From: Glutinoglossum americanum
Lineage: Eukaryota; Ascomycota; Geoglossomycetes; Geoglossales; Geoglossaceae
DNA length: 64,000 nucleotides
NCBI GenBank assembly: GCA_020080175.1
Contig: JAGHQL010000108.1
Coordinates: 1-64,000, forward strand
Direction: 5' to 3'
The notes under the pieces are model-generated. The model did not search any database, was not told where the DNA came from, and saw only the letters and a program-made list of their open reading frames with translations. Shown here one piece after another: positions 35,018 through 54,768 of this stretch. Each line of letters starts with the position of its first letter. Positions within the stretch are counted from its first letter, which is position 1. The translations under genes and the position numbers were made by a program.

Positions 35018-38000
35018 TCAAGCCATCACCACCCCCAACCTCGGGGCCTCCAAGTAAAAATCATCAAACCCCTCCATCAACCCCCCAGGACACCCCGCCT
35101 CCAGCCTCTCTCCCTCCCCAAGATCCCACCCAGCCCCCCACGTCTTCTGCCACAAATCCACCGCCTTCTGCGCGACACCCGCCCCCATCAGCGGATTCTG
35201 CCACCTCTCGACGACTTCCTCGAACCTATTCCCCTCGTTACCCATAATAGGCGCCCAAGCCGGATCGCTCGCTTTCGGGACGGTGGTGGGGAAGGGAGGA
35301 GCCGGGGAGAGCGCGTCGGCGGCCATGGCGGCGCGGACGTTGAAGGATTCGATGAGATCTGGGGATTCGAGGGGTACCGGGGAGTAGATCGTTAGGCCCA
35401 TCATCAGGTTTGTGGTGTTGTCGGAGGTGCCGTTTAGGGCGGAGGAGTTTTTGTTGGCGGAAGGGGAGAGGGTGGGGTCTTCGGATGGTTTGTCTGCGCG
35501 GGTCGGGTGTTAGTACGTGTCTTATACCCTGGGAAAGGGGGGTGGTGCTTACAAAGCCCCCAAAGCGCGTTTGGCACAGCCTTTATAATTGACTCCGCCT
35601 GGTTCCAAACCGGCACGTTAGGTTTCTCCTCGATCTCCACCCCATTCAACATCAACTTCTTCGGCTCTGGCGGCAAATCCTGCGTGATCGTCACCGTCAC
35701 CGCCGACGTCAGTGGTGTCGTTAGCCGCATCGGCTTCGCGTAGATCGAGCCGCCCGTGCCGGGGACCACCGTCGGCGGTGGCGGATCATCTCCATGCACA
35801 CCCGTCACCAATGTTGCCTGGTTGATCGCGAACTTGGTGGCTAGCGAGAACGAAAATACCGCGCCGCGCACGTTCCATGGCTGCCCGCTAGGCGTGGACT
35901 CCTGTTTTCCATTGGGTATAAGCCCGCTCTGCACCGTAAACACATGTGGCGACGTGGTCGCGGGTTCCCCCTCCGTCGTCGCCTCCTCACTACCCGACGC
36001 CAACAACAACGCTAGCTTCCCTGGCTTGTCCGAATCCTGCATAACCATCTTGAAGAAATCCCCCAGCGACACCGCGGCTATCGGCCCCGCGGAAGCGCCG
36101 AAGTTGATGTCGAACCCGAACACCCAGAAATCGACGTGCACCGTCCCGCCGAAAGGCGGGCCCTGGATGTACAGCGTCGCGCCAATTTCGACGCTAATGC
36201 GGATGGTCACAATCCAGAGGTCAAGCGTGAAGGCCACACCTACGGACAGCCCTCCCTCCGCCTGGAAGAAGAATGGCTTGTAGTTGATCAAAAAGTCCGC
36301 ATAGGCGTTGAACCACGCGCTCAGCGGACCTAACGCTAGCGAGACATCGAGCCTGCCACCGCCCATACACATCTTCGGCGTGATGGCAAAGTACGCCTGT
36401 CCCGTGATGCTGATATTCCCGTTGAAGTTCCAGCTGATGGCTAGTCTCGGCGGGTTCGGGTACTGTGGCGGCGGCCTAAACGCCGAATGGTAGCCCCCGA
36501 TCGTGAAGACCCACTGCCCCTGCAACTCCGGGTCCCGGCTGCCGAACCAGGAGTACAGAGCGAACCCACCCGTGAGATGGCAGTTCCGATCTATAATGTA
36601 CGACGCGGGGGTCAGCTGCCCTTCGATCTTCATGATGCCCGCCGCGAAGTCCACCGTCGCCACGACGCCGAGCTGCACATGCGCGAACTTAGGGACGCCC
36701 TTGCCTGGAGGGATGTCCGCCGTTGCGACGCCAAAGAGGCCGAGTTTGACCTTGGGGTCCCACTCGATGACTACGACAGCCTGCACGGTGAGGATCTCCA
36801 TCGCGTCGACTGTCAGCCCCGCGGCGAGCCAAAAAGAGCCGTTCTTGGGCGCGAACCAACCCCCGCGCAGGAGGTTCGCCAGAGTGTCCTTGGCCGTCGC
36901 GCCATCGGGCCCCGGGGTGGATCCGCCCATCGGGATGAGGAACGGGAATTTAAGCACGTTCTCCACAGTCGGGAACGCCAAGCTCGTATTATACCCAAAC
37001 CCGCCCGTGATCCCTGAGATCTGCGCAAACTCCAGAGTGATCAGCGGGCCATTCAGTCGCGCGAACGCGAAGAAGCTCTTGAACGCCTCCTGGTCCGGCG
37101 GGGTCGTCTCTCCATAATACCCCGCTGCCTGGAACAGCCACGGCATGTAGCTCACGATCAACGCGCCTTGGTAATACTCGGTATCCTTTGAGAAGCCGTG
37201 CTCGAAGAGGCCGGCAAGAAGGATTGGGGGCCTGTCAAAGGCGGCGCTCATGCCTGAGAGGGCGAATTTAGGCTCAGGTAAGTTCTGGAGCGAGTTCTTG
37301 GAGGTGAACGGGAGGGTGATAGAGAAGCCGAGGAGGGAGAAGGTGATCGGGCCGAGGGTTATGGAAGCGTCGAGGAGAATGCCGATGGAGGACTCGTCGC
37401 CATTGGTACTGAACTTGAGGCCCATATTTTGGATGGAGAGCGGGCCGATGGTCTTGGAGTAGCTGCCCATGGCAGAGCCCGAGTCTGTGGTGTCATCGTC
37501 TGTGCGAATATCGATAACGTCGCTATCTTCCACGACTTCCGTAACAGCTGTCCTCGCGGCGATTGCCTTGGGCGGTTTCGTCTTCTTCTTAGACGCAAAT
37601 TGATAATCCAGCGCTACCTTCGCCACTCCCTTTGCATCATTTAGCACAAGCATGAAATGGCTCCCAGCCTGCACTAGCACATCCCCGTCGCCCTGCTTGT
37701 CTTTCGCCTTCGTGAACTTGAATGGTAGAGGCTTTTGTTCCAGGTCTTCCAGCTTCGCATTGATGTATTTTAGGTCCGCGTAAGTTAGCCCCAATACTGG
37801 GGGATCATCGGTATTGCTCTTGCCGTCACTACCTTTCTGTTTAGGCGCCGGCTGCACCCACATGTAGAGCATCTCGTCGAACGGTTGCGTAACATCTCCT
37901 ACGAGCGGAATTACTACGCTTGGTAGCTGGTGTATGCTTGCCACGAAAACCCTTCTCACGGGGCCAAGCGTAGGCTTGTCCCCAATGTTAATCCGACTTT

Positions 38001-40663
38001 GAATAAACTGGAACTTGAAACCCTCGATGTCAACATATGCTGTGAAGAACGTGTTCCGCTGCTTCTGACCTTCCTCCAGCGAGTCCGCAACGATCTCCAG
38101 GCCGATATCGTTCTTCGCTTTGGGCGGCTTGACGCTGATATTGGCTACGAAAGGCGGAAGTGGTGTATCTAGCTCCCCAAGAATACTCTCGACGATCTTG
38201 CCGACAGTCGTAGAGGGGATATCCGGAATGTCTGGAATAGCCTTTGCATTGAAGGTCCAACCCTTGTCTTTATACTTGAACGTCAGATCTAGCTCATGTG
38301 TGCCCAGCATAAGGATACCATTGAAAGTGAAGCCTGGTGAGCCGCCCTTGCTGGCATAAGTATACTCGATATCCAATTTCTTGATAAACAGACTTTCAAT
38401 GACGCTCAGCACGCCGTCTCGAGATGAGGCCCCAAAATAATCAATAATCGTCGACCCAAACAAGTTCTCAACCCCTGCCTTGAGCACCCAGCCATCTTTG
38501 TCCTTGACTATAGAACCGGACACCTCGATCGGGGACCCGTACTTGGAGTTCGCGGGCGGCATGAATATCGCTGTCATCGCCAAGGACACTTCGAACTTCG
38601 TCTCAGCTCCCCAGGCGTACGACGCCGCCAATTCGATCTTGCCCAGCGGGATCTCGGGAGCTTTGTCATCGGTTTTCTCTGGCTCCTTGCAGAGCATATT
38701 GCCCGAGAAGGAGATCCCATCAGACCCGATCTTGATGCCCGCCTGCGCGATCTGGGTGGGGATCTGCTCGGGGAGACCTTCCCAGCCGGCGAGGGCGGTG
38801 AGGTCAAGGGTCGGACCTAGATCGCTGGGAAGGATCGTGACGGGGCTGAGCTCCATGTAACTTTCGTACCCGGGGAGCAGGGGCATAATGGTGGTCTTGG
38901 CGTCTCCAATGGGCGGTGCTGTTGGGGTCGCGTTAATACAGATTAAGGCTTTGGAAAGGGGGAAAGAAGTATAAGGAATGAAGGAACTCACCTGTCCAAA
39001 GATCGGCACTCAAGGCACCCCCAGTTCCCCCAGCCCAATTGAACGACACCAAAAATAGTGCCGTCTTCGTGCCCCCAAAATTTAATTTAACTTCCATTTC
39101 TACACCAAACTCCTCCAGCGTTCCGTTCGCTTTATTACCTGGCGCATCCTCTAGGCCAAACACCATCACTACCCTCCTCAGACACACCTGTGCGAAATTC
39201 ACCTTACCCGCAGCCTTCTTCAACCAGCCCTGGAAATCAAACTGGCCCGCGAGTCCGACCTTACTGGCGAGCCACTCAAGGATGGTCTCGAGCGCGCCGC
39301 TGATGTCGGATTTGAGGGTGAGCTGGAGCCTTATGGCGGAGGGGAGCGGCTCGATTATGGCTTCAAAAGGGATTTTGGAGAGAACCGTCATCTCGAGGCC
39401 GAAGGCTATGGAGCCATCTTGCACGACCGCGACGGATTTGGCAGAGGTACTCCACATCGCCGTCCGGCGTCCGATCACGAAGCCCTTGTCCAGCTTGATA
39501 TCAGCGCCGATCTGCGAGAGTAAACCCGAAGTGATGAAAAGCGTCGTGTTGTCGATGTCGTACTGCAACCTCAGCGTCGTCTTGTACCCATTAGACGGCT
39601 CAAACCACACCGCATTGCGGTTCCCCTTCACCGCCGCCGGGCCACTGAGTTTGAGCTTCAGATCACCGAGCGCCGCCATGGTGAGTGAGCCCACTTGCTC
39701 TTGTAGGCCGAGGTAGTCTACTAGGTCCGAGAGCACAATGTCAGGTGGTGGGGGGGGTCTGGTGTCAAGGCCAAAGACGATGGTGTCGCTATCTTCAAGG
39801 TAGCCCATGTCCGGCACGTCCACGGTGAATGCATCCGAGGCGGCAGCGGTGGAGAAGATGAGGACTTGCCCCTCGCTGCCCTCCTTGATCTCCACACCAA
39901 ACTCGAACCCGCTAACCGCCCCCGCACCGGAATTCGTGACAGCAACGTCCCTAGCGCCGATCGCGTCCATCAGCCAAGCACCCATCTCATCGCTCTCAAG
40001 GAGCAGGGTGGTGGCCGGATCGGTGCCGGAAGGGGGAGCCGCAGCCAGGCAGACGACGCCATAGTGCAGGGCGCCAACGAAGCCATCGAGCGGAGTCCCT
40101 TCTTTAACCTTAACATAGGAGTCGGTTCCAACCCCGATCTTTTTCGTGGGAATCCGATTGGAGTACAGAAAGAACCCCTTCTCAGGAACTGGGGCTTTTC
40201 TCGGGGATAACGTTGGTGGAGCTAGGGCTGGGGGCATGGTAACAGCACGGGCTCTCGATTTTCCCCCTTTCCCCAAATTGTCCCTTTCATTTGGGTCTGT
40301 GCCGGGGGGCGAAGAAAAAGAAGAATTGACAATCACCCCAGACGTCCTCCTTCCCAACCCCACCTTCGCACGAGGACCTTTCCCTCCAACAAGTGCCAAT
40401 TTGTCATCAGGTTTTTTGGGTTTGCCGCCCAGGGGCGGGCCGGTCAAGGGGAAGCCACCGGCCGCGGAGTGAGCCACCGTGGGGTTTTCTACGCACTTGG
40501 TCGAATTTTCAGCGACCTTGGCGCCAGGGCGTGCAAAGCGGTGGAGGGTGCTGAGACCCAGGTGTTTGTAGGCAACACCGCCATCTGTAGCATCATCGTC
40601 CCTGCTTTCGATCAGAAGGCAGTCGACTGCGTTGTTGGCATCGACCTGGGCTTGGCTAGGCAT
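35018..40663 (-). CDS. Giant beta-rich DUF6603-like protein
   Basis: Three exons (40663-38992, 38918-35553, 35493-35018; introns 73 and 59 nt) give 1,837 residues without a stop. Residues 1-160 are low complexity. From about 165 to 1,650 the protein is built from many short segments of alternating hydrophobic and polar residues, glycine- and aromatic-rich (for example GGSPGFTFNGILMLGTHELD, AWFNAYADFLINYKPFFFQ, VHVDFWVFGFDINFGA), as expected for long beta sheets, a beta-solenoid or a barrel. There is no signal peptide and no catalytic motif I can name. The style, size and PFFF/VDFWVFGFDINFG block resemble DUF6603 proteins known from bacteria and fungi; function unknown. An upstream ATG in frame at 40822 would overlap the neighbouring gene's coding end, so I chose the ATG at 40663. 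The last exon (158 codons) holds ATG-rich, alanine-rich sequence. It probably acts with the hydrolase encoded 68 bp upstream. Confidence 0.8.
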
Positions 40664-40731
40664 GACGTGACCAGCGCCGGTGGAGGGGTGGGCTTCCTCT
40701 CCAGGGAAACCTAAGCATTTCTGTGTATCTA

Positions 40732-42241
40732 TTAGCAAGCCCAGTAGAACAACCATAATAGCGAAGAGATTGCGCTGTGGATTCTGCGTACCCAGCGAGC
40801 ATCGACCTGATCTAGAAGCCATTCGGTCTTATCTTGATTTTTTAGTTCGGTATATGCCGTATACTCCGTGATTAGTTTCTGGGAGGGGTCTCGGATTTTG
40901 TTTATCTTCGCGTAGAAGTCGTCCATGGCCTTGCGGAAGGGCTTGTCTGCCTCGGGATCGTCGAAGCTGCTCGTGTCGATCTCCCCACTGAATGTGTAGC
41001 CACCCTCCTTGCTAAGGGCCAGGTACCACGGGAACTTCAATGCGAAGATCCGGGTTTTGTAGTCGTTGGAGATGGCCCAGCCATGGAGGCAGAGCATGAT
41101 TTCCCAGGCTAGGGAAATTTGAATTGCCTCACGTTAGCTTGTGTATCCGCGTGTTGGACGTTCGTATTCTCTTGCTATAACTCAAGCTGGCGGTGCCATG
41201 GAAGACAGGTCGAAACTTACAAGGATGCACATAGCTCCCATCTGGGTTCGAGATAAACACATTCAATGGCCTAAACGCATCCAACATACTCGGCTCCAGC
41301 GGCGTCGAGTTCTTCGACCCATGGTGGCTCAGCTTCATGCTTGTCACCTTTCCATCCCCGGGTTTCTTGCTTAGCCACCCCACTACAAGTTGCTCTGTGG
41401 CCTGATCTGCGTCCCCCCCAAAGTAATGGGATATTCGCCCACTCTCCCATTGTATGATCGCCACGATAGAGTACTGGGACGTCTTCGCTACGGACTCACT
41501 CGCGGTTTTCGCCGGCTTACCCATAATTTCTCCCATGCAGGCTATGCAAGACATAGTTGGAAGGTCGCTGTTGGAGTTGCTAGCACGAAGCTCAGCGGGG
41601 GAGCCCGAAAGGTGGGCTGTAGTGGGTTTGGTGGCTGGCTCGAAGAAGTTGGCACCGAGGACGTCTGAGAGTTTCCCACCAATATTCTCGTCGGCAGTTT
41701 TGAGGAGACCAAAGGCAATCCAGTCTTTATCGTCTTTAGGAGCTGTCGACTCTGCACTAGACCACAGGCGATTGATGAACGCCTTTCCCGCATCCTGTTT
41801 CAGTAAATTCGTAGGTGCGCCATCTAAAACCCATTTATTCTCCTCCTTCTTCCCGTCCCAATTCGGGCAGAACATCACCGTCTCTGGGTCTCCTCCGCTG
41901 CTGTACTTCAACCACGGGACCTCCTTCCTATCCTTCGCATATTTAAGAATTGCGTCGAACACACCGCCATAGTGATCTTTGTTCCAGTGCGTGATGACGA
42001 TGGTATCGAACTGGATCAGCTTATTCTGCGTCTTTATCTCGTATCGTTTCGAGAGCCATTCCACCAAGCGAATGATGGGGTTCTCGTCGCTTGATCCGCG
42101 CGGGGAGGGCCCGCCATCAACTAGGACGGCGCGGAGAACCTCACTCTTCTTGTTGGGATTTAGCTGGACGAGGAGGTGAATGGCACAGTCGCCGACTTTG
42201 ACGTTGACGTGGTAGGAATCGACGCCAGTGTTGTTGGGCAT
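40732..42241 (-). CDS. ComEC-like metallo-beta-lactamase-fold hydrolase
   Basis: Two exons (42241-41221, 41108-40732; intron 112 nt) give 465 residues. Metallo-beta-lactamase-fold landmarks are VLVDGGPSP (39-47), THWNKDHYGG (84-93; metal-binding H85, D89, H90, i.e. HxxxDH rather than HxHxDH), a later GGDAD (275-279) supplying a metal aspartate, and KLSHHGSKNS (303-312), the SHHGS signature of ComEC/Rec2-type hydrolase domains. There are no membrane helices, so this is a stand-alone, soluble version of that nuclease/hydrolase module. The C-terminal 125 residues are a separate alpha-rich-looking part that follows the intron and ends with a hydrophobic IHSAISSLLWLFYWAC. Substrate unknown; the family includes DNases and phosphodiesterases. 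It lies 68 bp upstream of the DUF6603-like start on the same strand, so co-transcription or an unspliced/fused arrangement is possible. Confidence 0.85.
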
Positions 42242-44461
42242 TGTGAGGGTATTTGGAGGGACGAGATGCACAGAGGTTGATGCTAGCTAGCTTCAAGAAC
42301 GCAAGTGCCTAGAGATTAAAACTCTCTTGGGATCTCATCCTCCTTAGGGTATCCGCCTTGAAGTCAATAGTTTCACCAAGGCAATAGCAAGAGCCAAGAG
42401 TCCTCCTCCACGATGGGGGTTGGGCTTGTTCAACCGAAGCAATGCAGAAAACAACCAGAGTACACAAAAGCCCTTACCCGATCTTCGACTCTGGTAGAGA
42501 AGAGTTGTCCTCCAAAGCTGGTAATGCTTTCTTCGTCACCCGCAAGCAAACAAGGTAGCAGTTGGAGGATCGAGGGGACGGGCTTATCCCCCTCACCGAC
42601 AGCCATGAATTTCCGCCAGAGCCCCCCCGCGGCGGCCGGAAGACTCAAATGCATGCAGTCGATGTTCTTGATCTAGGCCCGAGTGGAAGCCCATCTCCTT
42701 CTTCCGCAGGACACTATAGACGCAGTGCTTCACCACGAATGGCATTGAGTACGCATAGGCCATGCAGGCCGTGCAAGTTGGCATCTTCTTCGCAGAAACT
42801 CCATCCCAGTAGCGACATCGGAGCCCCACATGGATCGACGAGGCGTGCGTGTTTCGCTGGCCTTCGCGTGCAGTTGCCAGAATGTGAAGTGGGGATTCCG
42901 GTGCGTGAGATGCAGTTCGAGAGTCACCTTTCACAGCTCGCCGTAGTGTTTCGGCGAGCAGATGTGAGTTCCAAGAATGTACGTGCGATGTGCGATGTGC
43001 GATGTGCGATGTGCGATGTGTGATGGTGATGGTGGTGGTGATGGTATGTGGTGGATGTGGTGGGTTCGGGCCAAAAGTCAGCGAAGTGGATAAGCGAATT
43101 CCCCGTGAGGCTTCTGAACGGATCTGTTTTACTATTTGAAAAGACCAATGAATGTGTCTGTAATGTGTCACGCCGGCCTTGGTAATCCTCCGGCCCGGCC
43201 CGACCCTTTCTTCAGCCAGCCGCAGCGCCCAGGACGGGAAGCAGGCACTGCTCCCCGACTTTGACAGGACGTGATGCACAGCCCAACTAGTGATGTGTGA
43301 TGTGGCGTTGTGCGTTGCATCTGAAACTGATCCCGACCCTGAATCGCCGCTGGTCAGTCTACGCGCGTAGTGTTTAAAGTTTGTTTCCTGCGGGTGACTT
43401 GACGTGCAGTTAAGCCGCAGTTAAATAAGTATCCTGATAGGGATATGCCCCGCTTTTGGTACGAATACGGAACGGGTGCTCCTCATAACTATAGTTAGTC
43501 GCTGTTACCTAGTGTCGTGTGCACCACAAAGATTTTTCAAACCATTCGTAATTGAGATTTTCGTGCGTGAATCTTTGGAATTCGGTACAAGTGCCCAGGC
43601 ACTGACAACACCAAGGGCCTAGTACTGTACGGAGGATCGCGCCACGGTCGTCTCTCCCAGCTGAAATGCAGTGAACACGGCTTTGGCCGTGTGTCACACG
43701 TCCATGTAGAGTACAGCACTGGGTCAAAAGTGTTAGAGCACTTTACGCATTGGCTCGGCGCTGCCAGATCCACCACTAGAATGGTGATCGAAGGTCCCAC
43801 CGTGTGGGCATAGCCGAATCTATTGGGCTTTGAGTACATTTCTGTTTGTGCGGAAAATTGAGTTTGTATGCTAGTGCGAAGCAGTTGTGAGGCTATCGTT
43901 GCGTTTTCGCTACGCATTCTAGTTGTCTGTTGTGCTTGGCTGCGGGTCTCATTGCCTCATTGTGCGTGGAGACTTAGCTGCTACCATGGGTCATGCTGAC
44001 CCCGCCAGATCTTGCGAGCGCGCACGCCAGAGATACGGTAGAGGTGGGCATGGCCCGGCAAGAGGTTGATGCTAGGCGGCCTTAGGTTGTGTTAGGCTGG
44101 GCGTTACTTCTGCTCGCGAACCTCTGGGTCCCCGGCAAGTCCCTTGAGGCCGGGGCAGTCGCTAACTAGTCCCTAGTTAAACATCCTGTCAACTTAGGGC
44201 CCCGCTTTAACTAGAATCTAGTTGACTATCATGAAGCTATAGTTAGGTGACTAATGTGTCCTGATGTCTATGTCCTAGCGCTGTAGAACAGCTAATGGTG
44301 GATATCCGCATGCTCCACGCCTCACTCGTGCGTAAATCGCAATTCTATGGGCAGCTTGAGCAGGAAATTTGACATTGGACTTGCATTCACGATACGGAAA
44401 TCATCGAATAGGCATAACTAGGCTGGCCAACTTCAGGGAACCTAGCACCCCTTTCCCCATC
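42242..44461. other. Gap inside the large-protein cluster
   Basis: No firm gene in 2.2 kb. One minus-strand segment, 42654-42487, reads like an exon (LPAAAGGLWRKFMAVGEGD, then a donor-like GTAAGG at about 42482), but I cannot link it in frame to the hydrolase gene. A 228-codon minus-strand frame (43279-42593) runs through a microsatellite and is rejected. CTAGTT-like words recur around 44165-44250. Confidence 0.35.
42984..43018. repeat. Heptanucleotide microsatellite (TGCGATG)5
   Basis: Five perfect head-to-tail copies of TGCGATG, then a TGTGATG variant and a GGTGAT/GGT-rich trinucleotide tract to about 43043. It lies in the gap upstream of the hydrolase gene. Confidence 0.95.
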
Positions 44462-47400
44462 TCAAGACTTTGGTCCATCCCCAGTGATCGCAGTCTTCAT
44501 CTGTAAATACCCCTCTAGAGCTGTGTACGGCCCCTTCTCAAACTTCGGCCTATTATCCACCTTCCCCAGCCCCAGCGCCATAAACGCCGATCCCCCTTTC
44601 CCACCTTCCTCCTCCGCTCCCCTATTATCGCCCTCCTTCTCACCCTCCCCGCCCACCCAGTAGGGCTGCAGCCAGCACCAGTCCGCCACCGGCAACGCCG
44701 GCATCCCGACCTCTGATCCCTCGACCGTTTGATCCTTTGCTGGCGGTACGAATCCGTAGTTTGATTTTAGCCTATTCTTCTCCTCGAACCTGGGAACGTC
44801 GGTGGGTACGATGAGTGGGCCCATGTGGAAAAAGGCTGTCATTCGGTTGAGCGCGCTCTCCCAGGTCCAGCTGGGTAAAGAGAGGGACTTAATCGGCAGG
44901 ATACCTGAGTAGGCGCTCAGCGGCAGGAAGGGGTCCATGATCGTACCAAAAACTGACCACTGAGAGTTGCGGATTAGGGCGTAGTTGGCCGGATCTTTGT
45001 CATCGGGGGGGGTGTAGAAGGGCCAGAGGATGGGATAAGGGGGCTTATCGATGAGGTGAATGGGGTTTTTGGGGCCAGGCGGGGGGCCGCTGGGCGTATG
45101 GAAATAAGTGTAGAGGGTATCGAGGTTAAGTTCGTTCCCCGGAGCCGGACTGGGGAGCGCGTCGAAGTAGCCAACGAGCCCGTCACTAGTGCGCTGTTCG
45201 TCGCCCAGCTTGACGGAGAAGAAGTACTGCTTGTCCCTATCCTTCGGGTTGGTCGGTTCGGGGCCATTGTAGAGAATGCTCCGATCGGGATCCCTGCCCT
45301 TCTGGCCCTCTTGGGATGATTGGTTGACCTTGGCGTCCGCCGCCAACTCTAACGAGAATCCTGCGTTAACTAGTGCCAGCGGCTTCCCGACAAGTGAACT
45401 GACGAACTTCGAGTATGCGCTGGGCGCAGATGGCGCGCGATCCAGAGCGTTGATGATCATATCAAGGAAAGCTAGGAGGTATGTCTCATCCTCCTTGTTC
45501 GTCAACTTTTCGAGCAGGCGATCCAGTTGGCCCGTATTGGTCGGACCCTTAGGCGGACCAAACGGTAACCAATTCGGCGAAGCAGCCACATGAGCTGAAG
45601 AGTTCGGTGCGGCGAGACGGACCTCACGGTAGAACGTCCCATCGGGCAGGAAGATCTGGATACCATAATCCACGTAATTGACCACAAGCCAACCCCAGAT
45701 TGGGTTCTCCCATTCCGTCGCAGGCCTCCAGTAGACAGCGCTAGTAGACTCCTCATTGCGTACCACGAATGCCGAGTTCAAGCGTGTGGGCTGGTTAATC
45801 TGTGGTGGCACCTGCATGAACTCACAGAATCCATCAGCTTCTCGAGGGCCCACAATTTTCGGCTGACCAGCATCACGATGGCCAGGTGGGTACACCTGGG
45901 GCTCGTAGTATTCGCTGATGCATGGGTAGACTGCCTGGGGGCCTGTGGGATGGTATGATGGATCAATAGCATGAACGGCTTGACCGAATTTGTCGATGAT
46001 GTTGAGCTTTGTGAATCGAAATTGACCGTGCGTTACGGGTTTAAAAGCAGAGTAATCCTCGCCGAGGAAGCTAACCATGAACCCGTAGGGGGTTAGATCA
46101 GATTCTTTATCAATCCACTGTAGCTGATCTTCTTTCATCCCACCTTCGCTTGAGGCCTTAACTGCGTCGGGTATGGGTTGCAGAGCCTGCTTGCGCATTC
46201 TCGCATTTGGCTTGATGTGGCTGCCATGAGAGACCGTCAAAAGGTGGTCTGTAAATCCATCAAGGGGAGATGAGAGGAAGTGGAGCGTATGGAGATCAGC
46301 TAACAGCTCCTTCTGCTTTTCAGGCGGAAGAGCGCTATTAAGGAGGTCCTCTGGAGTGGTGCTAAATAGTCTTGTGATCTGCGCCTGCAAATCGAAGATG
46401 GGCTGAGGAAGGATGAGAATCCTCCCTGAGGCGATACGAATATCTTTAATGGTCACTGGAGGGGGACCTGGATCGTAGATGGTTTTATCTTCGAGTATCC
46501 CATATCTGTACTTGGGGTGTTCAAATAGACGAGCTGTGTGCTGATTAACATCCCAATAATCGAAAGGAATATGGGTATATTCGGCTTCCCACTCCAAAAA
46601 CAGCGGGAACCAGGGTTGTGTACTCTCCCACCGGTCTCTCCAGGGGTCCTCAGGCTTCGGGTTATTGGCTGGATCTCCTTGGTCGTGGTACAATGGATAA
46701 AATTGCGTCGGCTGAATTTCCAGAGACGTTCCCGGCCTGAGAGCCATAAACTCCCCCACGAGCGAGGCGCCAGCATCTCGCAACGCTGCAGGAAGGCAGC
46801 CGACACCAAATAACGGGTCGGTGCTAGTAGTCTTAGAGATGATCTGCGAGTCCAGTCGGACCTTGAGTAGCTCCAAGAAGTCCCAGGGCCATCCGGCATT
46901 AACCCCTGCAACAAGCAAGGTGGGATCTCGTTGCTGGAAGAACTCCGGCCGGACGGCCTGAGTGGGGGTTCTCCTGAAGCTTCCACCCTCTTTGAGGGCC
47001 TTGATTTTGTCCCATTGATTAGTAGCTAAACTATTTAGCTTCTGTAGGCGGGTTGTTAGAGCGCTCGAGTCAATGTTGGAGATTGCATTTGAGTGGTTCA
47101 CGTCACTGACATACTTCCACCACAATGAGAACATATTCCACCGAAGCTGTTGTAGCATGCGCATTGTGCCATCCAGAAGATCCTGAGCCTGATTAAGATT
47201 CTTTAGAGCCAGAGCTTCAGCTTCTGAAGGAGGCACTATATTCTTATCACCTGGATCGGCCGGGATATGCCAGTAAGTACCACCGCTAGCTCTAGAGAAA
47301 TTCCAATTTTGCACCTCATCGGCGGCGGCCCGTTGTGCTTCAACGCCATCATCTTGGGCGCGTAAGAGTACACGGAGTTTGTATAAGTCTTCCTCAAGTT

Positions 47401-48598
47401 CACTGCCGCCCTGACGGTGAGCTTCGATATATGCTAATAGAGAGTCCATTGATGTTGTACCGACTGCGACTGGCATCCCCTTGTTCAACATGTGCGAGCA
47501 TTCGTCGGCCGGCATCTTCTTCGGTTTTTGTTCGGCGTTCCACTCGACGTTATACATTGCTCCGTGACAAAGGGCCTGCGTAGATTCGGATGCGTTGAGC
47601 CAGGCAGTGACATCAGGAGGCGGCTCCTTCTGAGCGTTCAATGTCATATTTAGATCTTTGAGCCGTTGTTCATGTGTCGTGCCGTCCCCGGTGAAAAACG
47701 GGTCGTCATTAGCATCCGAGTGCCATCCAATTACATAATAGCTTGCGACAGCAGCTGTCAGATGGTTTTCTTCGTTTAGGCCATAGCCGAACGTATCAAG
47801 GGTAGAAAAGACATTGCCGCAATGGGGTTGGAAGTCGGCAAACAGCTGATTAGAACTGTTCAAGAGACTGAGATCCGCTCTTTTAGCTCCAGGGATTTCG
47901 TCCCCGACTTTGCCCTCCTTCCATGTCCTCGCATCTTCTCTATACCCAATGAAGATCTCTGCTTGCTGTTCGATACTAATACCATCACTGCCAGTGACAC
48001 CCTGAGAGGTGAGGAACGGCGATACGTCCACCTGAAGATCAACGGAGACATCAAGGTCATCAATACTGCGCATTAAATCACTTTCAATAACCCAAGCTTT
48101 AATACTTTCGATCCCAGATTGGGCAGGTTTAGTGGTAGGCGCATTGGGGTCGAGAATCCGGATTACCAACCACCTATTGGGAACCCTTCTGAATCGAGGT
48201 GCCGTAAGGTCTTCTTTCCCGGGATCCAGATTCTTGCCGGGGGGCTGCGTTGCCGAAGGACTATCGGCCACTCCGCTTCTATAAAATCGAGGAATCATCC
48301 AGTGGAGATAGACTCCCAGGCGGTTGATTCGGGTGGTTGCCTTTCCAAGGTCTCTAAGACGTGGGTTGTTCTCCGCCGGTGCAGCATTATGGAGATCAAT
48401 GTGTTCCTGAATATCGTTCTGCACGAGGAAGTCTTTAAGCCGGAGGAAGGTGTAGTTCGGTTGAGTTATGGGAGCGATTTTGGCGTCTGGTAGGACGGTT
48501 TCCAAGGTTTGAGCATCGGGGGTTTCGCCGCATACCGCCGGGTTGAAAACGAAGGCGTCTAGCTTGAGCGGAACTGAGACTTTGCTTGATGTCGGCAT
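44462..48598 (-). CDS. Large single-exon protein with LHW motif, family uncharacterised
   Basis: One uninterrupted frame of 1,378 residues from the ATG at 48598 (MPTSSKVSVPLKLDAFVFN); frames upstream of this are open but start without homology-like sequence. Visible landmarks are LGVYLHWMIPRFY (LHW at 98-100), FRRVPNRWLVIRILD (around 140), KAWVIESDLM (around 168), an IFIGYRED strand, ALCHGAMYNVEW (around 340), and an amphipathic helical region with RWNMFSLWWKYV (486-497). The C-terminal half has many aromatic and proline residues, RILILPQPIFDLQAQI, and WGWLVVNYVDYGIQIFLPDG. No signal peptide, transmembrane helix or known catalytic motif is seen. I recall uncharacterised bacterial proteins with the same run of LHW, PNRWLV and W(V/I)ESD motifs, but cannot check this. 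The lack of introns across 4.1 kb contrasts with most genes nearby and fits a bacterial origin. Confidence 0.8.
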   Translation of the reverse strand: MPTSSKVSVPLKLDAFVFNPAVCGETPDAQTLETVLPDAKIAPITQPNYTFLRLKDFLVQNDIQEHIDLHNAAPAENNPRLRDLGKATTRINRLGVYLHWMIPRFYRSGVADSPSATQPPGKNLDPGKEDLTAPRFRRVPNRWLVIRILDPNAPTTKPAQSGIESIKAWVIESDLMRSIDDLDVSVDLQVDVSPFLTSQGVTGSDGISIEQQAEIFIGYREDARTWKEGKVGDEIPGAKRADLSLLNSSNQLFADFQPHCGNVFSTLDTFGYGLNEENHLTAAVASYYVIGWHSDANDDPFFTGDGTTHEQRLKDLNMTLNAQKEPPPDVTAWLNASESTQALCHGAMYNVEWNAEQKPKKMPADECSHMLNKGMPVAVGTTSMDSLLAYIEAHRQGGSELEEDLYKLRVLLRAQDDGVEAQRAAADEVQNWNFSRASGGTYWHIPADPGDKNIVPPSEAEALALKNLNQAQDLLDGTMRMLQQLRWNMFSLWWKYVSDVNHSNAISNIDSSALTTRLQKLNSLATNQWDKIKALKEGGSFRRTPTQAVRPEFFQQRDPTLLVAGVNAGWPWDFLELLKVRLDSQIISKTTSTDPLFGVGCLPAALRDAGASLVGEFMALRPGTSLEIQPTQFYPLYHDQGDPANNPKPEDPWRDRWESTQPWFPLFLEWEAEYTHIPFDYWDVNQHTARLFEHPKYRYGILEDKTIYDPGPPPVTIKDIRIASGRILILPQPIFDLQAQITRLFSTTPEDLLNSALPPEKQKELLADLHTLHFLSSPLDGFTDHLLTVSHGSHIKPNARMRKQALQPIPDAVKASSEGGMKEDQLQWIDKESDLTPYGFMVSFLGEDYSAFKPVTHGQFRFTKLNIIDKFGQAVHAIDPSYHPTGPQAVYPCISEYYEPQVYPPGHRDAGQPKIVGPREADGFCEFMQVPPQINQPTRLNSAFVVRNEESTSAVYWRPATEWENPIWGWLVVNYVDYGIQIFLPDGTFYREVRLAAPNSSAHVAASPNWLPFGPPKGPTNTGQLDRLLEKLTNKEDETYLLAFLDMIINALDRAPSAPSAYSKFVSSLVGKPLALVNAGFSLELAADAKVNQSSQEGQKGRDPDRSILYNGPEPTNPKDRDKQYFFSVKLGDEQRTSDGLVGYFDALPSPAPGNELNLDTLYTYFHTPSGPPPGPKNPIHLIDKPPYPILWPFYTPPDDKDPANYALIRNSQWSVFGTIMDPFLPLSAYSGILPIKSLSLPSWTWESALNRMTAFFHMGPLIVPTDVPRFEEKNRLKSNYGFVPPAKDQTVEGSEVGMPALPVADWCWLQPYWVGGEGEKEGDNRGAEEEGGKGGSAFMALGLGKVDNRPKFEKGPYTALEGYLQMKTAITGDGPKS

Positions 48599-49699
48599 TT
48601 CTATTGTCTGTGCCTGTAGAGTCTTCAGATGCTGGAAAAATGGCAAAGGATGTAAGCTTACTGATGGAAGTCGGAGTAGAGATTTTCCTACGGAGATTTG
48701 GCGAGAGGGCACCCTCAGTCTCAGTGAAAAACCAGTCAGTCGCAGTTAGTAAGGCTACGCCATCGTGCAAGATAGAAGATTATGGGAGATCCTCCGGTCC
48801 AAGCATCAAGGCGAACAGGTGCAACCTGAGCCCCGAACCTCACACCAGAGGGCAGCTATGCTCTGTCTACAAACAGCAAGTCTGCGGGTGAACATCCCGT
48901 CGATCGCTCTAGACGTCGCTCTGGACGTCGTTCTGGGCGTCCTTGCAGCTGCTGAAGCTGCAAAGCATAGGATGCAGTCGGTCAGTCCGCATGAAGATTT
49001 GACTACCCGCATTACAGCGTGGAGGATCTTACAGCGCTGGATGCGGCATTCCAAGTCGCATTGATGCGGAGGGTCACGTCGTGAGATGGTGATAGCTCTG
49101 AGTCAAGATGATGTCGTGGTCAACTTAAAGCTGCACCGGCTCGGCAACTTTTACCGAAGCCAACCCTAAAATGGCCCCGACGCACCCAATAAAGCGATGC
49201 GCTATACGACACTGCACATGTATTATAAGTGATTCCAAAAGTGACCATGCAAGAACGAGCGGGGCGCTCGAGGAGCTGCAATGGTCATAGCGCCGGAGCT
49301 GAAAATCTCAGTGACCCGCACAACATGCAGTAGGGCCCTGAAAAGCACAATAATTAATTAGGCCTAGCTTAGTGGTTGCGTCTATGTCTCTGCAGCGCGC
49401 GAAGTGTGCAGGAACCGTAGCAAGGCTCGATACTGCCTCGCGTCCTGCCTTCCCCGAACCATTTTGGGGTGCCAGCATGTTTGCGTAACATACTGAGACG
49501 CTAGCTTCTATGCTTTTGGTTCTTGTTTTGGTTTACAACATAATCACAGCCACGGGCGGGACAAAATAATCCGCAATTAATTGCCCAAAATAATTGACCA
49601 AGTTACATCATCAGATTCTCAATTTGGTAGTGCTTGTTTACTAACTACTTCCCGACCCTAGCTACATGTCAGAACATAGGTGGGTCACTATTTCGCCTC
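48599..49699. other. Promoter side of the LHW gene
   Basis: No gene supported. Overlapping frames at 48543-49064 are open on both strands. An imperfect 12-bp repeat (CGCTCTAGACGT-like, three units) lies near 48905-48940. The region between the LHW gene and the end of the lectin-like gene should hold the former's promoter. Confidence 0.4.
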
Positions 49700-50734
49700 T
49701 TACGGCTCTCTCGTGTCGAGGGTATCCTCGACTATGTTGAACCCATCGCCACCATCTTGCTGGTAGACCACGTAGTTTATGGTCCCAGAGTTCGTAACTG
49801 AGAGACATGTACCCTGCGCAAGGTGGATTGAGCCTGGAACCTGGAACGGTTTTTGCCACCCATCCTTCGTCAATGCTACCTTTGTGAGATAGCGACCGGA
49901 GGATCCGTAGTAGAGGTAAATGTTCTCCAGTACAGCCACCATGGCAAGTGGTGTTCCAGGGGGAAGACCATCAGTATTTTGGATCCTCGTTGCTGGACGA
50001 ATTAGTCAAAGCCCTCAGCTAAACTGCATCTCTGGGTCTTACAAGCTTCTTGGTCTGTGTCGTATGAGAAAAGGGAATTGTTGGATTCCAATGCTTGATA
50101 GGCGATGAGCCGAGATTGGGCCCTGTTACAAGCTGCAATGCTAGTGTTGGGATGCGGAAAGGTCTGCGGGAGTACAGAGAGGTTGCCGGCGTCATTGTTG
50201 GTCAACGAATATTCAACTATCTTCGGTGCTGCGAGGTCGCCCCTAGACGCAGTTATTGAATGTTTCCATCCGAGTTTGGAGTAATCAGGCCAGCATACTG
50301 CAGATAGTAGACGCGAGACCTGTTTGCCTGCTCGTTTGTGGTAGCGAGGCCAGGGAACATTGTAAAGCTGGGTTTGCCGATGGCAATAGGGTTGTAAATA
50401 GGGCTCAGTTGGGAGATCACGTTAGGACTGCCCGCAGGTGCGCCCTTCTGTGCAGTAATGCCATATACGGTGACCTAGCAAACCCCATGAGCGAAGCCGT
50501 ACAACCTACGGGTTAAGCAGTTGTCGGCAACATTACCATGTTGGCACGAAGACAGACTGCCATGGACCCAGGGTTCTTGATGACACCCTGCACAGTGCCT
50601 TTGTCAACATAGGCAGGCCCGGAGCCGCTCAGAAGCTTGCGCTCGAGGCCGAGCTGGGCCGATTGCGTCAAGAAAAATATCAAGATCTGATCCGCCTTGA
50701 GGGGATTCAATAGAGTAGCGACGGGGCTGGCCAT
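49700..50734 (-). CDS. Propeller/lectin-like protein
   Basis: Four exons on the minus strand (50734-50537, 50474-50299, 50242-50043, 49992-49700; GT-AG introns 62, 56 and 50 nt) give a clean 288-residue protein. It has repeating short modules with a strand-turn-strand look: SRVYYLQGDLAAPKIVEYSL, SRLIAYQALESNNSLFSYD, NIYLYYGSSGRYLTKVALTK (then DGWQKP) and GTINYVVYQQDGGDG. Such Y/W-rich modules are typical of fucose-specific-lectin-type and other small beta-propellers of fungi. The assignment rests on pattern only, not on conserved sugar-binding residues. The first 60 residues form a different, alanine/leucine-rich part (MASPVATLLNPLKADQILIF). There is no signal peptide. It is placed head to head with the WQLG-protein gene and shares its promoter region, suggesting co-regulation and perhaps a recognition role in the same system. 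Confidence 0.68.
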
Positions 50735-51399
50735 AGTTACTAAGTCTTAGGATCTGCTGTTTGCAAGTTTATGCTCGAGGTAGGGAATATTTTGTGATGT
50801 CTAGGATTTCTGGGATGGGCGGGGCAATATATCTCCCACCCAGGTCGGAGAAAACCGACCCGGGTCCCAAAAAGAGGCAAGAGAGTGCGTGGCTCGCACC
50901 ACCAAGGTAAGCAAGCTAAGACTCGTCGTCAGCCAGCCACGTACATAAGAGACATGTCGTAGTTAGACACAAAGAGAGTATCGGCGTGGGGCCTTGATTA
51001 CACGTCGACTAGGTGACAGTCGGCAGGGCGGAGGAGAGTTAGCGGCATGGGGTCGACGTCCGAGTTCGCAGCTGTTACCCTGTCGGCTGTGTGCTCTCGG
51101 TAAAAAGACGTGCAGCCAGCCACCAAGGTGACGGCCGAGTACATGATACATTAACTTCCGATCAGTCACCCTCACCTGTAATATCTGTTCTACACTAGAG
51201 TCGAGACCATCCACGAGCGGGGTCAACCAACAAAAGCAATATAGGCAGGATGACCTGGATGCGCTCGGGGTGCGCTCGCCGCAACCCACGTAAGGAATTC
51301 GCCCATTTCACTAGCCCCCCTCTCGAAAATTGTTGCTGTTAAAGTGCATCCTCCATTTCCCTCGAAAGACCAAGTCAGTACTCTGCACTGATAGTCGTC
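50735..51399. promoter_or_regulatory. 665-bp divergent intergenic (bidirectional promoter candidate)
   Basis: Separates the start of the lectin-like gene (minus) from that of the WQLG gene (plus). It contains a CAATATAT stretch at 50825-50832 and the CGG-N6-CCG palindrome listed separately. Short open frames inside it have no motifs. Confidence 0.55.
50843..50860. promoter_or_regulatory. Candidate Zn2Cys6 factor site, GGTCGG-N6-CCGACC
   Basis: This is a perfect 6+6 bp inverted repeat around AGAAAA. The core TCGG-N6-CCGA equals the half-site spacing used by some fungal binuclear zinc-cluster proteins (Ppr1 in yeast; UaY in Aspergillus). It sits 109 bp upstream of the lectin-like ATG and about 540 bp upstream of the WQLG gene. 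The sequence match is certain; the binding protein is inference. Confidence 0.5.
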
Positions 51400-54300
51400 A
51401 TGCCCTCGCACCGCAATCGTCCTTCCAAGTTCATCGACTCGCCGCGTCATCTTGTTCTCCGCCATGGCCACCGTCTGATACAGCGCATAAACAAATTGGA
51501 CGAAGGTGGCCCCACACTGCCTCCGGGGTACGAAAAGTTACACTCGTTCTTTGTACCTGGTCTGGAGGCCGGATTACATACAATCGGCGTTGAGCAAGTG
51601 ATCACTGTCCCTGGCGACCCTTCGTCCCCCTTGAAGAAACAGAATTTCCAGAAATTCAACGTTGTTGCACCCCGTTTCACCCTGCCAGACAATACAGTCT
51701 ACTCTGTCTATCCACCTCAAGGACATGCAGATAGAGCAGAAGTACTGCCGCACGTCGTCTTAACTGACCCAACTTTGCCTTGGGAAAGAATCGGGAGCTG
51801 GGAGGCAGAGAGAAAAAAGCATCCTCCCGAGGATATAGATTATAGAAAGAATCGTGTGCCATGGCTTGCGGTCTTATCATTCACCGAGGAAGAGCTTCGA
51901 CTTGCTCCCTCAGATCTTGCTGGAGATACAAGCCTCTTCAAGGGGACGGTCAATTTCAAGGATAAAGCTCAACAGAGCACGACATTGTCCATCAACATGC
52001 CGGTGACAGATCTGCGCCTGGTCGACACCAGTAGGGTAGCCACGCCCGTAACCTATGACCCGAATGTGGACGCAAATCCGGACGGGTCGACTCCTTCAAC
52101 TGACGCGATATTCGTGCCAACCAAGCTATTCAGGAGCTTCTTCGCCTCCCACAATGCAAACGGGGTACCCGAGCCAGCATCTCTAGACGTTTCCCGCTAC
52201 AGATTTCTTGCACACCTCCGTAACCTCAATCCGACAGGAATGGCGGAGGCGGATACGACAGATGGTGACCGCGCTTTCTCAATCGTGGTCGGACATCGGG
52301 CAGGACCACTTGATATCACGAAGCCGACGACCGTTGTTGTCCACCTCGTCTCAATTGAGGGCGTGGAACGAATGGATCCCAATGCCGTGCCACAGTTTGT
52401 TTCTCTATCCTCTCTATATAGCTGGACTTATTCTTGTCTTCCGCCAAACTCGCTCAACGTCAGCGATGCATTCGCTGGGCTGGGAAAGACCCTCAAGATG
52501 CTTAGACCTAGCCTCACCGACAAACAAATTGCGAGTATTGAGGCTGAGGAGCCAGCGGGTGGCCGAGTCGCCCGAAGGATGCTAGATGGCTACTCGATAA
52601 CTCGATACCGCGCGCAGACTGGCGAACCTACCGCTGCTTTCATCAGAGGCCCATTCACGCCTACAGAAGTTCCATCTCCTCTTACCGAGACTTGGACAGC
52701 CCTCTCGACTTCTGGCGCCGACCTACAAATCTTAGACCAGGAGCTCGGTATCATGGACCTAACGTATTCCGCCGCCTGGCAATTGGGAAAGACGCTCGCC
52801 TTAGCCGACCCCGCGTTTACAACCGCTCTCACGAGTGTCCGAAAGCAGATCTTTGACCTTGCAACAAGCGAGGCGCAGGCAGAGGCTCTACGGAAGAATG
52901 GGGCCCACAAGTCCCGCGTGGAGATCCTCAAGTCAATTGGCCAATCAGTAAAGCAACTTCGAGATCTCCCAACGAGTCCGCAATCGCAAGGGGTGGGAAT
53001 CATGTCGCATCGCTGGCGACGAATGGCAGTTCTCCCTCTCGATTTATCTTACCATAGTGATTCGGTCGACCCCGATATTGAAAAGCATCTAAACGAAGCG
53101 GCGATGATCATCTCCAGTAGTGTGGACGACGATGGTAAACCGACCGAACACCCGTACGACGAACACAATACCCCATATTCGACTGACTGGATGGTTGTTC
53201 TGCGTTGGATCCTAGACAGGGCCTTTCTCGTCAATGTACCCGCACATTACTTCATCACTGACCCAATACATCTCCCCATGGAAAGTCTCCGGTTCTTCCA
53301 CATTGATGCCAATTGGACCGAGGCGTTCATCGACGGTGGTCTCAGTCTCGCCAATCATCTCGATCGTGAAGACGACAAGATTCGTTTAGCAATCAAGAAT
53401 GCCTACAACCGCTACATTCACACTCCCAACTCCCAGCTCGGTTATGCTCCCCCTATCCCTCGTTATGGGTTCCTTCTTCGCTCGGTGCTTGTTACCCAGT
53501 TCCCCGATCTAGTGGTGAAGACCTTCCCGGAATTGAATTCGACGAGCCCTCCAGTTATCTTGCGCCACGAGAACATCGACAAAGGTGTCATGCTCTGTTT
53601 GTTCGCCGAGGCTCCTTCCGCGAATACCTTCGAGTCCCTCACCCTCGCACAGCCGCCCCACCAGCAGTTTTTTACTATTGCTGACGAGTTAACCGTAAAA
53701 TATATTGAAATGACTTACAAGAAAATATATACCGTCAAAGAACCCAACGACCCAAAGCGAAGAGAGGGACTAGAACGGCCTAAATGGAAAAGGGGTGAAG
53801 TGACGCCTCGTAAACCAGTGTTCCTCTGGGGCGACAACGAGGATGCGCCGGAAATCCGAACATTGCTTTTCGACAACTTCGCGAACGACCTCTTCAACTC
53901 ATTGGTGGATGGGATGAATACCAAAGAGCACTGGTTTGACGAGAAGTGCGCAACCGCAGCGATGGTTGGGATCCAGCTCAACGACCCCAATTGGCAGCTC
54001 ACAATCGATCTCAAGGACCCCGCAGCAGTCGCAGATCTCTCCATACCAGCAACGGGACCAAAACCACGAGCGCTAACGATCAAAAAGCGGAAGGTGCGCC
54101 CAAAAATGCCTATTAAGACACTTCAGCAAGTCGAAACCCGGAGCGCACCTCATCCCACCTTCCAAGAACGGACCCGCGTCCACCCCCTCATTCTCGCCCA
54201 CCCGCCACCACACTTCCGCATCCCCGCATCACGCTCCGTCGTCGAAATCCAACGCGGCAGCGACGACCCAGCCGGCGCCCCCAAATACATCTATTCCGCC

Positions 54301-54768
54301 TACCCGTCCGACCAGCTCCAATCCCCCACAATCCCCATGGCCAAGATCCAAGACCTCGTCTTCTCCATCGTTTACAAGGAAGGCGCGCAGGACTTCAAGA
54401 TCGTGAAGGTTACGCTGGCGATCAGGCTAGGCAATCCGGCGGGGCCGGGCGACGTTAGAGGGCCCATGATGTCTACCTATGCGGGGTCGGGCGCGACGAT
54501 GCTGTCGAATCTCAGGCTGAACGTGATACCATTGTTCGAGACGAGGAGTGATAGGAGCAACTGGCTGGTGCTGACGCTGATGCCGAGGAGTACGAGGGGG
54601 TGGATCGAGGCGGAGCTGGTGAAGGAGATGAGTTTTCTGTTGAGCGGGGTCAGCGTGAACGTCTCGCCGGACGCTGTGAAGTCCACGGTGATCATCAGGG
54701 AGTATTACCAATTCGGTCAAGTTTTTGAATATTCGTTCGAGGTTAATCTCGCACCGTTGCCGTCATGA
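51400..54768 (+). CDS. Large single-exon protein with WQLG motif, family uncharacterised
   Basis: One uninterrupted frame of 1,122 residues. Landmarks are LPPGYEKLHSFFVPGLEAG (around 40-58), NRVPWLAVLSFTEEEL (151-166), YRFLAHLRNLN (around 266), FSIVVGHRAGPLD, VVVHLVSIEGVERM (around 311), FVSLSSLYSWTYSCLP, AFIRGPFTP, and TYSAAWQLGKTLALADPAF (about 454-472). The second half has W/D-rich stretches (WILDRAFLVNVPAHYFITDP) and a basic region near residues 890-905. No signal peptide, membrane helix or catalytic triad is evident. The order VPWLA, VHLVS, RGP, WQLG matches, from memory, large uncharacterised bacterial proteins that occur near LHW-type proteins; not verifiable here. It is divergent from the lectin-like gene, and intronless over 3.4 kb like the LHW gene. 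Confidence 0.82.
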   Translation: MPSHRNRPSKFIDSPRHLVLRHGHRLIQRINKLDEGGPTLPPGYEKLHSFFVPGLEAGLHTIGVEQVITVPGDPSSPLKKQNFQKFNVVAPRFTLPDNTVYSVYPPQGHADRAEVLPHVVLTDPTLPWERIGSWEAERKKHPPEDIDYRKNRVPWLAVLSFTEEELRLAPSDLAGDTSLFKGTVNFKDKAQQSTTLSINMPVTDLRLVDTSRVATPVTYDPNVDANPDGSTPSTDAIFVPTKLFRSFFASHNANGVPEPASLDVSRYRFLAHLRNLNPTGMAEADTTDGDRAFSIVVGHRAGPLDITKPTTVVVHLVSIEGVERMDPNAVPQFVSLSSLYSWTYSCLPPNSLNVSDAFAGLGKTLKMLRPSLTDKQIASIEAEEPAGGRVARRMLDGYSITRYRAQTGEPTAAFIRGPFTPTEVPSPLTETWTALSTSGADLQILDQELGIMDLTYSAAWQLGKTLALADPAFTTALTSVRKQIFDLATSEAQAEALRKNGAHKSRVEILKSIGQSVKQLRDLPTSPQSQGVGIMSHRWRRMAVLPLDLSYHSDSVDPDIEKHLNEAAMIISSSVDDDGKPTEHPYDEHNTPYSTDWMVVLRWILDRAFLVNVPAHYFITDPIHLPMESLRFFHIDANWTEAFIDGGLSLANHLDREDDKIRLAIKNAYNRYIHTPNSQLGYAPPIPRYGFLLRSVLVTQFPDLVVKTFPELNSTSPPVILRHENIDKGVMLCLFAEAPSANTFESLTLAQPPHQQFFTIADELTVKYIEMTYKKIYTVKEPNDPKRREGLERPKWKRGEVTPRKPVFLWGDNEDAPEIRTLLFDNFANDLFNSLVDGMNTKEHWFDEKCATAAMVGIQLNDPNWQLTIDLKDPAAVADLSIPATGPKPRALTIKKRKVRPKMPIKTLQQVETRSAPHPTFQERTRVHPLILAHPPPHFRIPASRSVVEIQRGSDDPAGAPKYIYSAYPSDQLQSPTIPMAKIQDLVFSIVYKEGAQDFKIVKVTLAIRLGNPAGPGDVRGPMMSTYAGSGATMLSNLRLNVIPLFETRSDRSNWLVLTLMPRSTRGWIEAELVKEMSFLLSGVSVNVSPDAVKSTVIIREYYQFGQVFEYSFEVNLAPLPS

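What the first reader, a model, noticed from the sequence alone, without database searches (positions are those of the whole stretch)
35018..54768. Candidate undescribed multi-gene system: DUF6603-like giant, ComEC-like hydrolase, LHW protein, lectin-like protein and WQLG protein
Five adjacent genes over about 20 kb, four co-oriented and one divergent, stand out from the decayed surroundings by being intact and by encoding very large proteins of unrecognised function (1,837, 1,378 and 1,122 residues) plus a soluble metallo-beta-lactamase-fold hydrolase and a propeller-like protein. From memory, all three giants resemble uncharacterised bacterial proteins. Together they could form a defence, recognition or surface-assembly system: a hydrolase effector, a recognition module, and beta-rich scaffolds.
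Basis: partly seen in the sequence, partly recalled or inferred. Interest (0 to 1): 0.88.

Follow-up and report, generated by a model that had tools for sequence, protein, structure and literature searches.

The report
Giant-protein cassette shared by fungi, bacteria
A fungal gene cluster for very large proteins of unknown function is a version of a gene set that unrelated bacteria also keep together, so it looks like a real and undescribed working unit whose job is still unknown.

Summary
The window is from the earth-tongue fungus Glutinoglossum americanum. The cluster is real but has four genes, not five: the "ComEC-like hydrolase" and the "DUF6603 giant" are one spliced gene of 2,302 residues (database model P0241; all 37 listed homologues of 2,000 residues or more are fused likewise). 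DUF6603, WQLG and LHW each have hundreds of homologues, often at neighbouring locus tags in fungi. The same three genes form an operon in bacteria: 40 of 45 loci found through LHW have DUF6603-WQLG-LHW in order on one strand, in seven or more phyla. Starting from DUF6603 instead, 22 of 40 Streptomyces loci and 9 of 19 others hold all three. Nine bacterial loci have a ComEC-type hydrolase just upstream of DUF6603, like the fungal fusion. Most of the 45 loci add a tail-fibre-like gene with a variable tip. Fungal LHW and WQLG trees share 22 of 26 splits while contradicting taxonomy, so the cassette seems to travel as a unit. DUF6603 models as an amphipathic beta-meander; LHW has no clear PDB match. 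No paper in the held library names DUF6603. Function is inferred only: possibly a recognition-tipped, membrane-active assembly with a nuclease. The "lectin" has no sequence support.

The parts
35018..42241 (-). MBL::DUF6603 gene, 2,302 aa; exons 42241-41221, 41108-40792, 40720-38992, 38918-35553, 35493-35018
   Evidence: Exons, same protein as P0241; PF20248 E=1.9e-156 at residues 1510-2047; 37 of 37 listed homologues >=2,000 aa carry the MBL
40792..42241 (-). N-terminal MBL (ComEC-type) part of that gene; motifs HWNKDH (relatives mostly HWDxDH), GGD, SHHGS
   Evidence: PF00753 E=0.012 below cut-off; TIGR00361 E=5.5e-6 below cut-off; PADLOC LmuA E=3.5e-9; motif counts
35554..38916 (-). Exon holding the DUF6603 domain; modelled as amphipathic antiparallel beta-meander
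   Evidence: Model m2495f8c3b5fc, pLDDT 81.6, pTM 0.61; strand alternation
44462..48598 (-). LHW gene, 1,378 aa, single exon
   Evidence: bacterial homologues align over most of its length
49700..50734 (-).
   Evidence: Frames; no meaningful Pfam or PDB match
51400..54768 (+). WQLG gene, 1,122 aa, single exon, divergent; bacterial homologues of about 715-810 aa lack its C-terminal extension
   Evidence: alignment

Best explanation
SHOWN: this is the fungal, condensed form of a gene set conserved between bacteria and Ascomycota. The core is DUF6603 + WQLG + LHW; a ComEC-type MBL hydrolase gene lies next to DUF6603 in some bacteria and is fused to it in many fungi; most bacterial loci found through LHW also have a tail-fibre-like gene with a conserved Ig-like N-terminal part, often a repeat stalk, and a variable tip. 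INFERRED: the proteins build a large assembly that works without a classical signal peptide and is aimed at other cells or particles. The variable tip (in fungi perhaps the small gene between LHW and WQLG) recognises the target; LHW and WQLG are scaffold; the amphipathic DUF6603 beta-sheet engages a membrane or lipid; the MBL domain, where present, is a metal-dependent nuclease. Targets and order of events are unknown.
For: Operon conservation: 40 of 45 LHW loci; 22 of 40 and 9 of 19 DUF6603 loci hold all three genes. MBL just upstream of DUF6603 in nine bacterial loci and fused in fungi. Fibre-like gene in 36 of 45 loci, with differing tips. Patchy occurrence: 34 of 295 Streptomyces, 4 of 244 and 13 of 247 in two other phyla. 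Genes inherited together across fungal classes. Amphipathic DUF6603 strands with low-scoring matches to membrane and lipid-binding beta-proteins. Few signal-like N-termini.
Against: No experiment bears on function. MBL is absent from most bacterial loci (seen in 3 of 45, 3 of 40, 3 of 19) and from 80 of 120 listed fungal DUF6603 hits; the window's MBL has N where relatives have D. The fibre profile finds nothing in the 360 listed fungal proteins, and its suggested link to the WQLG C-terminus is not significant. The small fungal gene is unidentified. LHW is missing from four of the 13 close DUF6603 loci. Fold matches have low TM and high rmsd.
Confidence: 0.4

Rival explanations
1. Intracellular immune system: the giants sense an invader (virus, plasmid, foreign DNA) and the MBL domain is a gated nuclease that destroys DNA, as in Hachiman, AVAST and canu systems.
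For: The MBL's closest curated relatives are LmuA, RT-associated MBL and Avs1a; such nucleases usually lie just upstream of their partners and need activation (PMC12799240, abstract and passages), as the MBL does beside DUF6603. Cytosolic-looking proteins, patchy distribution.
Against: No protease, STAND ATPase or SMC partner was seen by Pfam in the cluster's proteins; MBL is missing in most loci; a tail-fibre-like gene fits an internal sensor less well.
Confidence: 0.25
2. Lipid handling: DUF6603 is a long hydrophobic beta-groove or belt that carries lipid, with LHW and WQLG as partners.
For: Amphipathic strands; LptD and ApoB100 among the Foldseek rows.
Against: Patchy distribution, variable recognition-type tips and a nuclease-type MBL do not fit a housekeeping lipid role. 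Fold similarity is weak.
Confidence: 0.15
3. Adhesion or surface structure: the genes build an appendage for attachment or kin recognition, without an effector.
For: Tail-fibre-like stalk and F5/8, PLAT or Kelch tips; WD40, hemopexin or Kelch propeller genes beside some distant DUF6603 relatives.
Against: Few signal-like N-termini or hydrophobic anchors in LHW and WQLG by a crude count; does not explain the MBL.
Confidence: 0.15

Closest known systems
DUF6603 family (PF20248)
   Same: The window protein is a clear member.
   Different: Pfam describes only the domain; the fixed partners, the MBL fusion and the fibre gene are not part of that description.
ComEC/Rec2 MBL domain, a Mn-dependent nuclease (PMC8579336, abstract)
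   Same: MBL similarity and HxDxDH ... GD ... HHG motifs in most relatives.
   Different: No ComEC channel; score far below the family cut-off (24.8 against 190 bits); the window copy has HWNKDH.
Gated MBL nucleases of Hachiman, AVAST, Lamassu, DRT and canu (PMC12799240, abstract and passages)
   Same: Same MBL group by profile; gene directly upstream of its partner in bacteria.
   Different: No trypsin-like or caspase partner found in the window cluster; here the partner is DUF6603, to which the MBL is fused in many fungi.
Phage tail fibres / receptor-binding proteins
   Same: Bacterial fourth gene: Ig-like base, repeated LTVNG-type stalk, exchangeable tip.
   Different: No sheath, tube or baseplate family among the 25 of 54 neighbour families shown; no LHW relative in viral contigs; no PHROGs match for the DUF6603, WQLG and LHW proteins scanned except within the MBL part of P0241, where a 'tail protein' family matches at 2.2e-5.
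Outer-membrane beta-barrels, LptD, ApoB100
   Same: Long amphipathic antiparallel strands.
   Different: Model-normalised TM at most 0.16 in the top 18 rows, rmsd of 13 A or more; no signal peptide; also found in fungi and Bacillota.

Membership tests
DUF6603 (PF20248) | profile match over the curated cut-off | tested here: met
   523.9 bits against 27
ComEC/Rec2 DNA-uptake protein (TIGR00361) | whole-protein profile over cut-off | tested here: not met
   24.8 against 190.05 bits, MBL part only
ComEC-type MBL nuclease domain | HxDxDH, GD and HHG metal motifs | tested here: inconclusive
   34 of 40 fungal MBL-bearing hits have HWDxDH; the window has HWNKDH with GGD and SHHGS present
ComEC-type MBL nuclease domain | metal-dependent nuclease activity | not testable with these tools
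   needs biochemistry
Avs1a (NF041809) | whole-protein profile over cut-off | tested here: not met
   17.6 against 420 bits
Gated nuclease-protease defence pairs | partner trypsin-like or caspase protease | tested here: not met
   no protease family in the cluster's MBL::DUF6603, LHW and WQLG proteins; a CHAT and a trypsin-like gene lie near one bacterial operon, link untested
Contractile or extracellular injection system | sheath, tube and baseplate genes | tested here: inconclusive
   none among the 25 of 54 families shown for 41 neighbouring frames; flanks limited
Fungal fucose-type or other lectin (small gene) | lectin profile match | tested here: inconclusive
   no lectin family at E<=1 for three pieces; pieces are short
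Repeating beta-groove lipid-transfer proteins | open hydrophobic beta-groove of the known fold | tested here: inconclusive

The most novel reading that the evidence does not exclude
A previously unrecognised class of molecular machine shared by bacteria and filamentous fungi: a giant, signal-less, beta-rich assembly with an exchangeable recognition tip, a membrane-active DUF6603 sheet and, in several lineages, a ComEC-type nuclease adjacent or fused, passed between kingdoms and between fungal classes as a unit and used in conflict with other organisms or their genetic elements.
Probability: 0.3. Interest if true: 0.92.

Novelty: categorically new. Interest (0 to 1): 0.77.

Why it matters
Gene sets kept together in both bacteria and eukaryotes are rare. 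Here three giant protein families without known function are tied to one another, to a nuclease-type enzyme and, in bacteria, to a variable recognition-type gene, which turns an anonymous DUF into a testable system. It occurs in many filamentous Ascomycota and, patchily, in Streptomyces, Nocardia, Paenibacillus, Bacteroidota and cyanobacteria, so a role in competition, immunity or surface biology would be broad.

Tried and rejected

Second DUF6603 type: the other 18 of 40 Streptomyces DUF6603 loci match my DUF6603 profile only weakly or not at all and have no clear WQLG or LHW. Nine frames there match WQLG weakly (E 2.5e-6 to 1.1e-3), and a third giant shows no profile link to LHW. Not counted as support.

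Rows left out: of 46 Streptomyces places I fetched 40; left out were L009's own place, four fragments and, by oversight, G128:C411. From I left out the places of L037 and L033 and one weak hit. L034 is from the same chromosome record as L027.

Full report
What is there. The window is fungal: the homology search returns its own protein as FGG08_004950 of Glutinoglossum americanum on a 91,295-base contig, and the assembly is 25.8 Mb in 317 contigs. The region 35018-54768 holds four genes. Minus strand: MBL::DUF6603 (42241-35018, five exons, 2,302 aa), LHW (48598-44462, 1,378 aa) and a small spliced gene (about 50734-49700) whose frame changes once. Plus strand: WQLG (51400-54768, 1,122 aa). Of the 120 listed DUF6603 homologues, all 37 of 2,000 residues or more match an MBL profile (built from 15 of them), against 3 of 83 shorter ones. 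DUF6603, LHW and WQLG each give one place in this genome.

Homologues in fungi. LHW, WQLG and DUF6603 have 455, 593 and 401 homologues at E<=1e-3 (about 8,000 candidates scored each, 120 listed). The listed rows that bear an organism name are, as far as I recognise the names, Ascomycota, except one gene set labelled Carpinus fangiana, a plant (probably fungal contamination). Reading locus tags by eye, eight gene sets have all three genes within five numbers (Rhizina undulata 425/426/427, Coccidioides posadasii 7691/7692/7694, Aspergillus hancockii 2380/2379/2377, A. alliaceus 7817/7818/7820, A. tanneri 8792/8793/8797, Xylographa pallens 3893/3894/3896, Orbilia ellipsospora 5834/5835/5837, Venustampulla 8820/8822/8823), and 18 further pairs of two of them are as close. 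In eight sets one tag is skipped between LHW and WQLG, where the window has its small gene.

The same cassette in bacteria. Tblastn with LHW matched eight plasmid records. In Streptomyces sp. NBC_01276 and Paenibacillus polymyxa, LHW follows a DUF6603 gene and a 'hypothetical protein' that aligns with WQLG. A scan of bacterial genomes with the LHW alignment gave 39 loci. With local HMMs (built from fungal and a few of these bacterial sequences), 40 of the 45 bacterial loci (6 plasmid, 39 genomic) have DUF6603-WQLG-LHW in that order on one strand; of the other five, L008, L036, L039 and L044 are cut by contig ends and L003 shows no DUF6603. L041's DUF6603 is a weak match at a contig end. Record titles place the loci in Actinomycetota, Bacillota, Bacteroidota, Cyanobacteriota, Gemmatimonadota, Nitrospirota and SAR324. 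With the DUF6603 family as anchor instead, it occurs in 34 of 295 Streptomyces genomes, 4 of 244 in the phylum of the cyanobacterial locus, 13 of 247 in that of the Bacteroidota locus (12 over the cut-off) and 0 of 14 controls. Of 40 Streptomyces DUF6603 loci fetched, 22 hold all three genes (about five repeat loci). Of 19 regions from other groups, 9 hold all three (in L093 and L103 LHW lies on the other side of DUF6603), four hold DUF6603 and WQLG only, and six have a distant DUF6603 with no clear partner.

The hydrolase belongs to the set. An HMM of the fungal MBL domain finds a same-strand gene just upstream of DUF6603 in nine bacterial loci: L005, L006, L029 (L029 weak, E=0.003), L050, L056, L059, L091, L093, L101. 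In eight it is the next frame; in L006 one frame lies between. L101 matches the fungal domain best (E=5e-29). The six examined carry HxDxDH or HxHxDH and HHG. So the fungal fusion mirrors a bacterial neighbourhood, although most bacterial loci lack the MBL. In fungi 34 of 40 MBL-bearing hits have HWDxDH, one HLDSDH, four none; the window has HWNKDH, so whether its own enzyme is active is open.

A fibre-like fourth gene. In 36 of 45 bacterial loci a gene shares an Ig-like N-terminal part and mostly lies after LHW; it is often followed by 'LTVNG'-type repeats and a tip that differs between loci. Of 49 such frames, 3 have F5/8 type C, 1 Kelch, 1 PLAT and 1 a sub-threshold T4 Gp10_C-like domain; most have no named tip. 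Beside the distant DUF6603 type of Streptomyces, a WD40, a hemopexin and a Kelch propeller gene were identified in the three neighbours tested for them. A recognition-type partner is thus a recurrent theme. The fungal small gene may fill this place, but its pieces match nothing meaningful, and the fibre profile finds nothing in the 360 listed fungal proteins. Among 41 other flanking frames no family recurs beyond three TetR regulators and two hydrolases in the 25 of 54 families shown.

Evolution. In the LHW tree the 40 rows from the fungal homologue list (some from unnamed contigs) form one side of a branch against 20 bacterial rows (SH-aLRT 100, length 2.65; quick search with long branches), consistent with one ancient passage between kingdoms; direction is untested. 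For 29 fungal sets with LHW and WQLG on contigs of equal length, FastTree topologies share 22 of 26 splits. They group across classes: Orbilia ellipsospora (Orbiliomycetes) with Xylographa pallens (Lecanoromycetes) at 74, 73 and 74% identity for LHW, WQLG and MBL::DUF6603, and Apodospora (Sordariomycetes) with Varicellaria (Lecanoromycetes) at 69 and 66%, while the two Xylographa, or O. ellipsospora and Dactylellina, share only about 42 and 34-35% (O. ellipsospora and Arthrobotrys entomopaga 87 and 85%). The genes move, or are kept as ancient copies, together.

Verdict. The system is real and conserved; its function is open. It is not named in the held library as far as searches show; subscription journals are mostly not held.

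Noticed in passing
P0241-P0360: Fungal DUF6603 proteins of 1,600-1,799 aa in the list lack the MBL (39 of 39), so one fungal lineage lost or never gained it.
   Followed up: partly
L064-L067, L069, L070, L076-L087: A second, distant DUF6603 locus type in Streptomyces: DUF6603, a weakly WQLG-like protein and a different giant, in some loci beside WD40, hemopexin or Kelch propeller genes.
   Followed up: partly
window 12500-13680: Tandem array of 99-base units (11.9 copies, 94% matches) in an ankyrin-repeat gene at 11645-13705 with a weak GPIID_WHD match, NLR-like.
   Followed up: no
window 42983-43025: Heptamer array GTGCGAT, 6.1 copies, between the MBL gene start and LHW.
   Followed up: no
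P0036, P0266: LHW and DUF6603 proteins deposited as hornbeam Carpinus fangiana with neighbouring tags, probably a fungal contaminant.
   Followed up: no
L002:1-1581 and L002:26351-27171: A CHAT-domain gene and a trypsin-like peptidase gene flank the Streptomyces plasmid operon at about 5 and 8 kb; relevant if the MBL class is protease-gated, but may be chance.
   Followed up: no
L045:7874-9931: In the Desulfosporosinus locus about 3.6 kb with another frame separates WQLG from LHW.
   Followed up: no
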